Assembly (NCBI RefSeq): GCF_026151205.1
Contig: NC_087076.1
Span: 16,463,919 to 16,527,918 of the forward strand
Direction of reading: 5' to 3'
DNA: 64,000 nt
Source: Bolinopsis microptera
Taxonomy: Eukaryota > Ctenophora > Tentaculata > Lobata > Bolinopsidae
Part shown: positions 19,201 through 22,200 of the stretch, in pieces
Layout: each line of letters begins with the position of its first letter
How positions within the stretch are numbered: position 1 is the first letter of the stretch
Program-made: the position numbers and the translations under genes
The notes under the pieces: generated by a model
Database searches by the model: none
Told to the model about the DNA's origin: nothing
What the model saw: only the letters and a program-made list of their open reading frames with translations

Positions 19201-22200
19201 CTATAATCTGATTGGTCTCCACAAAGATCAGATTGATATATTGCAGTCGTATTTTAATAATTTTATGATAGTTAGGTAATTGAAACGGGGATTGCCGTTA
19301 AACATGATACCCCCACAGAGAGGACGGAAACAAACATTTCTTACAAGCATTAGCAAAACAAGGCAGCGGCTCCTTCCTCTTCCTAAACTCCAAGGAAAAG
19401 GGGAAATGGATGAACACGGTTTGTTCGATAATGACTATGTTCGTTTGTTCGTTCGTTTGCTGATGTTTTATCTCTTTTAATGTTCATGTTAGACGTAAAT
19501 AGTTTGTCGGAAATAATAGTCACTGTCACCAACTTGTAGCCAACATTGTGCTAATTTAATCGTTCGTCCAATATTTGCTACAAGTTGGTCACTAACGTAT
19601 AATCATCAAATATATATATTTCACCCTCATGATATTTGCAGAAATCACGTCCTTCAACCAAGTAAACTTTTTTTTCTAACAGTCGAGTCACGATTGATAA
19701 TTTTAAAAGTAACTTGTACAGATACCCTAGTTTCACTTCTCCAGGTGGGGATTCTGTATGAAAAGTGCAAAGAACCAGCGTTGGACGAAGTTCAGTTAAA
19801 GTGGAATATGTACAACAGCGGAGACACTGTTAATCAGGCTCCCCTGCTCATATCATCTCTCTTCAACAAACACAGACAGGTTTGTATCTTGATCTTAGAA
19901 AAGCCAAATGTCCGCTCTATCCTCCCAGATCCTGACTTAACTGTTTCAAACACCCTCACACTCACAGCTTCTGAAAACTTCAGATAGTGTACGGATACGT
20001 GCCCAACTGCAGATCAGCGTCTCTTCTCGCTCATCTTGGAGATCAGGTGTTGGACACGCTAGTCAGTGTGGAGGAACTTAATGTTAAGCAAGGTTTGAGG
20101 GAATCTCTTATCAATTTTTAGCTGAAAAGTTAATTTCCTACTCGTTCAGGTCGATGGGGAAGATTTTGGGATTTTGGATTGCCTGTTAATGTTCTTATTT
20201 CAAAACCGACTCGTAATATAATACCAATCATGACGCGGCGTCATCAATTTTAAATTGATCCAATTATCAAATTAACCAGTTAGCTAGAACTTCAAACTAC
20301 CCAATGATCAGGGAGTGTATTACACAAGCTTACTGCTCGAGCAATGATAGATGATTATGTAAATGGGGTCATGAGCGAGGACCAGAGACTACACGAGGTA
20401 AATCTCTATTTTATATTTCACTAATAATACACTACAAGAGATCTTGTTAGGATATCAAAACGAAAGACATAACGTGCAGAACTCACTAAACTTGTACAAC
20501 AATATCTGCAATTTATAATCCAAAAATTTGAAGTGGACTACGAAATTTTCACATTAAACTTAATTTTTACTTAAACTACTTCAGAGCCAGCAGCGCAAGA
20601 GAAAAGATGAAATAATATCTTTATCCCTGGAACACTCTGTAATATCGCCCTTCACCAGCTTTGTAGCAGTTGAGGAGCGAGGTGAGGGTGAGGTGGTTCA
20701 GAAAACTGTAGATGTTGAGACTCTCCTGTCAGAGATCAGAGTGGACTGCATTCCTTACGTTGGGTACTCGGACGTTTCAAAGTTAGAGGTTGGAAGAGTC
20801 GCATTTTTTTAATTTTTAATAACTTGCCATGTATGATGTACAATGTACATTGTGCAATGTACATCTTTAAGATGATTTTTGGCAGTGTGTAGCCTCTTAT
20901 ATGTGTACATTGTATATCTTACCTGGTTCTATTGACGGAAGCATGTTAAATTGTGTGATTTTCTCATCGTTTTGGTACTCAAAGTTGGAAAATTTTTGAC
21001 CCACTATTTAAATTTTATCAGTAAAACTTGTTATTGATGGTGACTCGACTACAGTAATGAGTAAATTGATTTTTTAAATCACAGGTAAGGGAACAGATAC
21101 GTTGCCCTGATCAGTATGATGAAATTATAAGATTGATTGAAAAAAAAACCTCTACGTACAATGTTCCTGACTCACCCGATTCGGATTCTGGTGATTCGAA
21201 GACGGAATCCTCGTCTGACGAAGACGAAACCGATTACTCAACGGTGGTTCTTGATCTAGGATCTCACAGGATAAAGGGAGGGTTTGCTGGAGATGATGCA
21301 CCCCGAGCTGTGTTCAAGTAAGCACATATAGATAAGAACTACACTTTTGCATTTCATTTCTTTACTTATTTCTTATAGATATCAATATTTCATGCGTATT
21401 AACCTAGAAAAGCTCAAAAGCTGTTAAAAATTATAAAATTTTGTAAAATTCCCCAGATCAGTCATAGCAATACCTGCAGCTCGTGGAGTTATGTTGGGTA
21501 TGGGCGGCAAAGATTACTTCGTCGGCGATGAGGCCGTTTGCAAAGCTGGAGTAATGGGAAGACTAGATAATGCATTCGTAGACGAACCATCCAATGTTGA
21601 CATTTCGGCTCTAAGGACGGAAAGTCCATTACCCTCCAGCACTGATTCTGAAGGTGAAGAAGAGGGGTCCCGAGTTGGAGTCCCACTAGTTATTGACATG
21701 GGTAGTTACATGGTCAAAGCTGGCTTTGTTGGAGATGATGAGCCTTTTGCTGATTTTCCTCCCCTCGTAGGAAGACCAAGGCATCGGGGGGTTATGGTTG
21801 GTATGGGACAGAAAGATTCGTACATTGGTAGTGAAGCGATGTCAAAGCGGGGCATACTAACGCTTACTAACCCTCTTGCTCCACCAAGAAGAACAGCTCA
21901 GTCTGTAGATGGTAGTCGACCACAACAAGCGCCAACCTATGCACAAGCGCCAGTGTATACACAATGTAGTTCAACTCCTCCTGCCCCACCGGGGGCCCCG
22001 TCACCACCTCGTATTTTAGCACAGAGAGCACTGAGGCGGAGTCTTAGTGGCTGTTCTGCGCCAACTCCACCGGGTGCGCCACCTCCACCATGTGCAGCAC
22101 CTCCGCCAAGTGCGCCACCTCCGCCAGGTGCGCCACCTCCGCCAAGTGCGCCACCTCCACCATGTGCGCCATTACGAGCACCGTCACCACACGCACGGCC

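What the first reader, a model, noticed from the sequence alone, without database searches (positions are those of the whole stretch)
21232..21890. Two actin N-terminal modules built into a vault PARP
The PARP4 reading frame contains two consecutive copies of about 60-65 residues from the start of actin, covering the first phosphate-loop hairpin and the D-loop. Identities are near complete over [12 protein letters not shown] in copy 1, and [15 protein letters not shown] and SKRGILTL in copy 2. Copy 1 is split by a phase-2 intron, so this is not a recent retrocopy or a chimeric read. I know of no PARP4 described with actin segments. The modules cannot form an ATPase. Inference: they may recruit D-loop binding factors, act as bait for factors that recognise or modify actin, or present actin-like substrate sequence to the adjacent PARP domain.
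Basis: partly seen in the sequence, partly recalled or inferred. Interest (0 to 1): 0.92.

Follow-up and report, generated by a model that had tools for sequence, protein, structure and literature searches.

The report
Actin D-loop displayed by vault PARP
A comb jelly vault protein carries two copies of the tip of actin, part of an old and widespread habit of this protein family of wearing pieces of the cell's most connected proteins in its tail, possibly as lures for whatever attacks those proteins.

Summary
The PARP4 gene of this window (Bolinopsis microptera LOC134814927) encodes two actin N-terminal pieces in its tail, copy 1 split by a phase-2 intron. The novelty claim is partly wrong: Perina 2014 mentions actin and 14-3-3 in some PARP4s (passages). 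The larger pattern I did not find in print. The same actin piece (about residues 2-72) sits in PARP4s of ctenophore, sponges, cnidarians, molluscs, hemichordates, echinoderms and Capsaspora. Actin 37-51, the D-loop, is nearly invariant while linkers diverge. PARP4 tails also carry pieces of ubiquitin, 14-3-3, HSP70, ESCRT-III, EF-hand proteins, R-SNAREs, clathrin, the ribosomal P-stalk end and RNA polymerase II heptads; 95 of 119 tail records hold at least one. Ubiquitin pieces mostly keep the diglycine end, often followed by proline, which should resist deubiquitinases (recalled). This is the place of the disordered region under positive selection in vertebrate PARP4 (passages). Best reading: a display of docking handles, most likely bait for foreign factors that read hub proteins. 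The mimicry is shown; the bait function is inferred.

The parts
13231..29022 (+). PARP4 (vault PARP) gene, LOC134814927; start codon at 13231; last exon placed ends near 29022, the final about 21 codons lie further on
   Evidence: hand splicing; P0001 maps by tblastn from 13231 to 27799; last exon placed by reading against P0001
15084..16167 (+). exons of the ADP-ribosyltransferase catalytic domain (approximate ends)
   Evidence: Pfam PARP E 3.6e-11 at residues 392-505 of P0001; exons
16373..17491 (+). exons of the VIT domain (approximate ends)
   Evidence: Pfam VIT E 3e-31 at residues 591-702; genome scan
18014..19421 (+). exons of the VWA domain (approximate ends)
   Evidence: Pfam VWA_3 E 0.0044, below the curated cut-off; exons; tblastn
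21229..21556 (+). actin module copy 1 (actin 2-65), split by a phase-2 intron 21318-21456
21457..23047 (+). largest exon of the gene model (1591 bases): end of copy 1, copy 2, proline-rich tail; position comparable to human exon 30
   Evidence: comparison with PMC4038475 is by position, not by alignment
21683..21877 (+). actin module copy 2 (actin 8-71)
   Evidence: Pfam Actin E 9.9e-13 alone
21767..21838 (+). D-loop hairpin of copy 2 (actin 35-58; its part 37-51 is nearly unchanged across PARP4s)
21970..22190 (+). proline-rich stretch of the tail (PPPPG/PPPPC runs)
   Evidence: read; no functional test
26565..26702 (+). R-SNARE-like helix, weak
   Evidence: Pfam Synaptobrevin E 0.0091, below cut-off; own profile from five other PARP4s, domain E 0.0026, 10.4 bits against at most 5.7 in shuffled tails
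27210..27338 (+). possible MVP-interacting domain, weak
   Evidence: own profile of PARP4 C-termini, 6.4 bits, domain E 0.0011 in a search of 3 sequences

Best explanation
What it is (shown): the tail of PARP4, between the VIT-VWA part and the C-terminal end, carries pieces taken from highly connected household proteins. The actin piece is an old one: only the first 70 residues or so, with the D-loop (actin 37-51) held almost letter for letter. In this ctenophore it is doubled and copy 1 has drifted. How it works (inferred): each piece keeps the part of its parent that other proteins grip and drops the enzyme or polymer function, so the tail works as a set of docking handles. A factor that grips actin's D-loop binds PARP4 instead, is held at the vault and comes within reach of the ADP-ribosyltransferase. 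I think the main driver is defence: the handles imitate host proteins that foreign effectors and proteases must touch, so PARP4 acts as bait, in the manner of integrated decoys of plant NLR receptors. Steps shown: presence, conservation of the actin piece, mosaic nature, change of repertoire between species and paralogues. Steps inferred: binding, sequestration or modification of the bound factor, and defence as the purpose.
For: Same actin piece in PARP4s of six animal phyla and Capsaspora, covering only about residues 2-72 in the PARP4s that were held against full-length actin. In 28 aligned modules chosen from 39, actin 37-51 is kept in 26-28 at every column but Gln41 (21), while phosphate-loop Gly15 is kept in 0. 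Actin module identity 0.74-0.93 against 0.20-0.61 for linkers in 8 pairs. Pfam in 19 PARP4s: ubiquitin, 14-3-3, HSP70, synaptobrevin, Snf7, EF-hand, clathrin propeller, PDZ, WH2 and Roc at or above curated cut-offs in one to four each; P-stalk (Ribosomal_60s), PRP8 piece and RNA polymerase II repeat below them. By pattern, P-stalk end peptide in 28 of 119 tails (shuffled mean 0.01) and YSP[TS]SP in 28 of 119 (shuffled mean 0.095). Ubiquitin pieces (18 of 32 aligned) average 54% identity yet keep Val70 and Arg74-Gly75 in 17 of 18, Gly76 in 16; the residue after the end is proline in 15 of the 24 that match R.RG[GA] (proline frequency 0.059). Genes of one species carry different sets, e.g. Mytilus trossulus P0158 actin, P0137 ubiquitin, PRP8 and clathrin, on different contigs. 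Vertebrate PARP4 shows positive selection confined to this disordered region (PMC4038475, passages). TEP1 of the vault has a TIR-like NADase domain of a family that defends bacteria against phages (PMC13174449, passages).
Against: No binding partner is known for any module. The actin and 14-3-3 pieces are old and slowly changing, which suits a constant endogenous partner as well as a bait. Other modules are less constrained: HSP70 0.52-0.54 identical between oyster PARP4s whose core is 0.82, and ubiquitin or SNARE pieces are missing in some partners. The four named shark PARP4s (P0186, P0189, P0190, P0193) and a sturgeon record show no module. 15 of 98 tails of 300 or more residues show none. 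Ubiquitin pieces keep Ile44 in 9 of 18 (Val in the other 9) and Lys63 in 1 of 18, and 9 of the 24 ends are followed by another residue than proline, 7 of them glycine. PARP4 is reported inside the vault, where a bait must be reachable. The window's own protein has actin twice and at best a weak SNARE piece; no P-stalk end, heptad, ubiquitin or 14-3-3 was found in it.
Confidence: 0.42

Rival explanations
1. Endogenous scaffold: the handles recruit the cell's own partners of actin, ribosome, polymerase, ubiquitin and SNAREs to the vault, for storage, transport or ADP-ribosylation. The D-loop would bind the barbed-end cleft of actin or D-loop readers, helped by proline-rich and WH2 motifs.
For: WH2 over cut-off in Oscarella P0031 and below it in Dysidea P0010; proline-rich runs read in several tails; slow, ancient conservation of the actin piece and 14-3-3 back to dictyostelids; Perina 2014 also reads the actin domain as a cytoskeletal link.
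Against: Does not explain why the set differs so much between species and between genes of one species, why so many unrelated hubs are imitated, or the positive selection of this region in vertebrates.
Confidence: 0.35
2. Pseudo-substrate: the modules present hub-protein sequence to the PARP domain of the same or neighbouring molecules, so that ADP-ribosylation of the tail is regulated.
For: Enzyme and modules lie in one chain.
Against: VIT and VWA lie between; the kept parts are docking surfaces rather than known ADP-ribosylation sites (recalled, no call).
Confidence: 0.08
3. Passive insertions: a permissive disordered tail picks up exons of highly expressed genes and keeps them for a while without function.
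For: Variable content of the tail; lesser constraint on HSP70 and ubiquitin pieces.
Against: The actin module is an island of constraint; its D-loop is nearly invariant from Capsaspora to animals; 14-3-3 precedes actin in Capsaspora, two sponges and two hemichordates alike; proline is frequent after the ubiquitin piece.
Confidence: 0.05
4. Annotation or assembly artefact.
For: None found.
Against: Spliced frame in this assembly, the NCBI model, and models of many species with the piece at the same place.
Confidence: 0.01

Closest known systems
PARP4 / vault PARP (PARP clade 5)
   Same: PARP catalytic, VIT, VWA, long tail; 14-3-3, actin or ubiquitin-related domains noted in some members by Perina 2014 (PMC4245714, passages)
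   Different: In the passages I saw, that paper does not describe the restriction to the D-loop, the spread across animals, the P-stalk end, polymerase heptads, HSP70, ESCRT-III, SNARE, EF-hand or clathrin pieces, or a bait reading; its Fig. 1B was not seen
Integrated decoy domains of plant NLR receptors
   Same: Copies of host proteins carried inside an unrelated protein (titles and starts of abstracts of PMC4759852 and PMC10195085)
   Different: No NLR frame, no effector known, no immune output tested; several hubs in one tail; short linear handles as well as domains
Actin and actin-related proteins
   Same: Sequence of actin residues 2-72, D-loop nearly identical
   Different: No ATP site, no rest of the fold, cannot polymerise by itself (inference from sequence)
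Rapidly evolving disordered region of mammalian PARP4 (exon 30)
   Same: Disordered region encoded by the largest exon, read as a host-pathogen interface (PMC4038475, passages); lies between the VIT-VWA region and the MVP-interacting domain (PMC10450202, passages)

Membership tests
PARP4 / vault PARP | PARP catalytic domain in mid-protein | tested here: met
   Pfam PARP E 3.6e-11, residues 392-505 of 2253
PARP4 / vault PARP | VIT domain after the catalytic domain | tested here: met
   Pfam VIT E 3e-31
PARP4 / vault PARP | VWA domain after VIT | tested here: inconclusive
   VWA_3 E 0.0044, below curated cut-off, at the expected place
PARP4 / vault PARP | N-terminal BRCT | tested here: inconclusive
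   BRCT_2 E 0.0002, below curated cut-off
PARP4 / vault PARP | C-terminal MVP-interacting domain | tested here: inconclusive
   weak profile match, domain E 0.0011 among 3 sequences
PARP4 / vault PARP | organism has vaults (MVP genes) | tested here: met
   six vault-repeat matches in two groups on contig C2; particles themselves not testable
Actin | complete actin fold | tested here: not met
   only residues 2-71 present
Actin | nucleotide site | tested here: not met
   Gly15 in 0 of 28 modules, Asn12 in 1 of 28; nothing of actin beyond about 72
Integrated decoy | resembles a host protein | tested here: met
Integrated decoy | set of pieces differs between paralogues | tested here: met
   different sets on contigs of different length in Mytilus trossulus, Ostrea edulis and Mercenaria
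Integrated decoy | bound by a pathogen effector | not testable with these tools
   needs biochemistry
Integrated decoy | binding triggers defence | not testable with these tools
   needs biochemistry

The most novel reading that the evidence does not exclude
PARP4 is the bait-bearing arm of an ancient vault-based immune system: its tail displays uncleavable or non-functional handles of hub proteins (actin D-loop, ribosomal P-stalk end, polymerase heptads, ubiquitin, 14-3-3, HSP70, SNARE, ESCRT-III). Foreign factors that seize them are trapped in the vault and modified by the PARP or signalled through TEP1, and the positive selection of mammalian PARP4 is the later form of the same contest.
Probability: 0.33. 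Interest if true: 0.96.

Novelty: new variant of a known kind. Interest (0 to 1): 0.8.

Why it matters
The function of vaults, large particles of many eukaryotes, is unknown. A tail that imitates the grips of the best-connected proteins gives a concrete, testable hint: find what binds a 65-residue actin piece or the end peptide of the ribosomal stalk when it sits on PARP4. If the bait reading holds, animals and their unicellular relatives have an integrated-decoy system of their own. If the scaffold reading holds, the list of handles names the vault's clients.

Tried and rejected
Artefact and recent retrocopy: rejected. Full-length actin fusion as in amoebal proteins: rejected, the PARP4s carry only residues 2-72 while most other large fusions carry most of actin; four non-PARP4 records (P0008, P0083, P0093, P0094) also show only a short N-terminal piece and were not followed. 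Separate origin in each lineage: not supported; in the best tree 26 modules (of 39) fall on one side of a branch from 19 actins, support 75/70, which does not prove one origin (few columns). AlphaFold2 on copy 2 (14-row alignment, mean pLDDT 65.6): first hairpin confident, residues 31-48 (D-loop) below 50; not good enough for a fold search, so none was run. Pfam on two of the three forward frames of 12301-24300 found the actin pieces and a sub-threshold TUSC2 match only; the other domains lie in short exons. A first automatic gene model split the large exon wrongly and was corrected by hand. In one search I also tried an exon at 23269 in a wrong frame; it was left out of the query. Tail boundaries set by script are late in a few records; for P0126 this hid ubiquitin and actin from the 95 of 119 count and made it the only hit of the N-terminal control. 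Listings of the paper searches showed no bait or mimicry account of PARP4 tails; only the papers cited here were opened, and the library is incomplete.

Full report
Observation. The window lies on contig C5 of a 264.7 Mb genome. The protein search names the gene as Bolinopsis microptera LOC134814927 (P0001, 2253 aa). The exons 21085-21317 and 21457-23047 join at a phase-2 intron and encode two consecutive actin N-terminal pieces. Copy 1 aligns with actin 2-65 (55%), copy 2 with actin 8-71 (75%). Pfam and PDB sequence searches agree.

Gene. PARP catalytic and VIT domains are clear; BRCT and VWA score below curated cut-offs but in the right order. MVP-type vault repeats exist in the genome, and so do DUF4062 domains in long open frames. 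The MVP-interacting end is only weakly recognisable. A weak R-SNARE-like helix lies downstream of actin.

Orthologues. The search with the actin pieces (residues 1190-1350 of my model; only large proteins are candidates) returned PARP4s from sponges, cnidarians, bivalves and Capsaspora. A second search with the Oscarella VIT-VWA part listed the best 120 of 870 matches, and a third with the Capsaspora tail added Hydra, two dictyostelids and a Thecamonas protein. Of 200 proteins held, 122 have both the core and the catalytic domain; 119 of these have a tail longer than 30 residues. Several are isoforms or near copies, so counts are of records, not of events, and the lists are capped.

Actin module. 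37 of 119 tails hold it by phmmer with the first 90 residues of a Bolinopsis actin at domain E 1e-3. The holders include Bolinopsis, six sponges, five named cnidarians, several molluscs, two hemichordates, three echinoderms and Capsaspora; species names come, phyla are my knowledge. In the PARP4s, compared with full-length actin, the match stops at or before residue 72. In 28 modules picked from 39, actin 37-51 is kept in 26-28 at every column but Gln41 (21); P-loop Gly15 in 0; outside that stretch conservation is lower (Ser52 16, Asp56 9). Most mollusc and deuterostome modules lose the actin sequence after about 60 but keep the D-loop; one of them, Amphiura P0101, lacks most of the D-loop. 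In 11 chosen pairs of orthologues linkers are 0.20-0.61 identical; actin modules, tabulated in 8 of the pairs, are 0.74-0.93 identical, equal to or above the preceding part of the protein in 6 and 2-3 points below it in 2. HSP70 (0.36-0.54) and 14-3-3 (0.44-0.85) modules are less constrained in the same pairs.

Other modules. Pfam scans of 18 whole PARP4s besides the window's find, at or above curated cut-offs, actin (10), ubiquitin (4), 14-3-3 (3, one more below), HSP70 (2), synaptobrevin (2, one of them exactly at the cut-off, one more below), Snf7 (1), EF-hands (2), clathrin propeller (1), Roc (1), PDZ (1) and WH2 (1, one more below); Ribosomal_60s (P-stalk), a PRP8 U6-binding piece and RNA polymerase II repeats score below cut-offs. 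These proteins were chosen for variety, so the numbers are not frequencies. Trichoplax P0194 and Patiria P0117 show none. Using PARP4-borne pieces as queries (a Bolinopsis actin for actin), 95 of 119 tails have at least one module, counting the two peptides below; 58 have two or more; of tails of at least 300 residues, 83 of 98. The same module queries in the N-terminal parts hit only P0126, whose tail boundary is misplaced. The four named shark PARP4s have none.

Peptides. The acidic end peptide of ribosomal P-stalk proteins (such as ESDDDMGFGLFD; identity of the motif recalled, and supported by sub-threshold Pfam matches) occurs in 28 of 119 tails against a mean of 0.01 in 200 block-shuffled sets; YSP[TS]SP of the RNA polymerase II tail in 28 of 119 against 0.095. 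Bolinopsis has neither.

Ubiquitin. In 18 of 32 pieces chosen, mean identity to ubiquitin is 0.535; Leu8 is kept in 16, Val70, Arg74 and Gly75 in 17, Gly76 in 16; Ile44 in 9 with Val in the other 9; Lys48 in 9; Lys63 in 1. Of the 32, 24 match R.RG[GA] near the end; the next residue is Pro in 15, Gly in 7, His in 1, Lys in 1. Of the 8 others, five end in [AK]LRGG followed by Pro (2) or Leu (3), and three lack the end. Proline is 5.9% of these tails, so the excess is large, although related species and isoforms are not independent; a sponge and molluscs share it. That a proline after the diglycine hinders deubiquitinases is recalled knowledge, not from a call.

Age. Capsaspora, two sponges and two hemichordates share 14-3-3 before actin; the two dictyostelid PARP4s have 14-3-3, P-stalk and heptads. 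The tree is compatible with one origin of the actin module but does not prove it.

Repertoire. Records of one species differ: Mytilus edulis actin (P0022) or EF-hand plus Snf7 (P0169); M. trossulus actin (P0158) or ubiquitin, PRP8 and clathrin (P0137); Ostrea edulis actin, HSP70 and P-stalk (P0155) or ubiquitin and heptads (P0179); Mercenaria ubiquitin and P-stalk (P0121) or EF-hand and heptads (P0172). The last three pairs lie on contigs of different length, so they are different genes.

Literature. Perina 2014 (passages) reports 14-3-3 in PARP4s of amoebae, lancelet, sea urchin and Capsaspora, 'e.g. actin' in some, ubiquitin-related domains in Acanthamoeba, and actin or actin-binding domains in a choanoflagellate, Capsaspora and Acanthamoeba. 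Citarelli 2010 (12 of 30 passages shown) and the 2023 human PARP domain survey (passages) do not mention such pieces of PARP4 in the passages seen. Daugherty 2014 (passages) finds vertebrate PARP4 positive selection confined to a disordered region of about 360 residues encoded by the largest exon; here the largest exon carries actin copy 2. A 2026 preprint (passages) shows TEP1 of the vault to be a TIR-like NADase and places PARP4 near the vault wall.

Interpretation. The pieces are, as far as I know their parents, what partners grip: D-loop, stalk end, heptads, diglycine end with its patch, R-SNARE helix, HSP70 substrate-binding part, clathrin propeller. The actin piece cannot make a filament or an ATPase. 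This supports docking handles. Many unrelated hubs, change between genes of one species, and positive selection in vertebrates tilt me to bait; the slow evolution of the actin piece keeps the scaffold rival close behind.

Noticed in passing
G000 C5 9527449 and 9581138: Two further VIT matches with identical scores on opposite strands about 54 kb apart, perhaps an inverted duplication of another VIT gene.
   Followed up: no
P0009 (Anaeramoeba flamelloides): A VIT-VWA protein whose actin stretches are in swapped order, actin 40-371 before actin 2-53, like a circular permutation.
   Followed up: no
P0012, P0014, P0023, P0024, P0056, P0073: Large proteins (one named Balamuthia) with DUF4062, TPR and a nearly complete actin at the C-terminus; DUF4062 is also the NADase domain of vault TEP1.
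   Followed up: no
P0013, P0016, P0036, P0049, P0055 and others: Proteins of about 1100-1200 aa with VWA or Sec23-like domains and a nearly complete actin in the first half.
   Followed up: no
P0096, P0185, P0191, P0195: Large fish VIT-VWA proteins without a PARP catalytic match; three of them list a transketolase domain (PF02779) among their precomputed families.
   Followed up: no
window 10616-12286: Ser/Pro/Leu low-complexity block with strong strand asymmetry (GC skew -0.485 in 10001-12000).
   Followed up: no
window 28240-28520: Long CT dinucleotide run inside the 3' part of the PARP4 gene region.
   Followed up: no
window 43543-44661: Reverse-transcriptase-like open frame, read by eye only.
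   Followed up: no
G000 C2 2560112-2563328 and 19330844-19332813: Two separate groups of vault-repeat matches, suggesting two MVP genes.
   Followed up: no
G000 C12 3453089, 5826371, 5837194: Three DUF4062 matches in long open frames of about 1100-1289 aa, possible TEP1 relatives.
   Followed up: no
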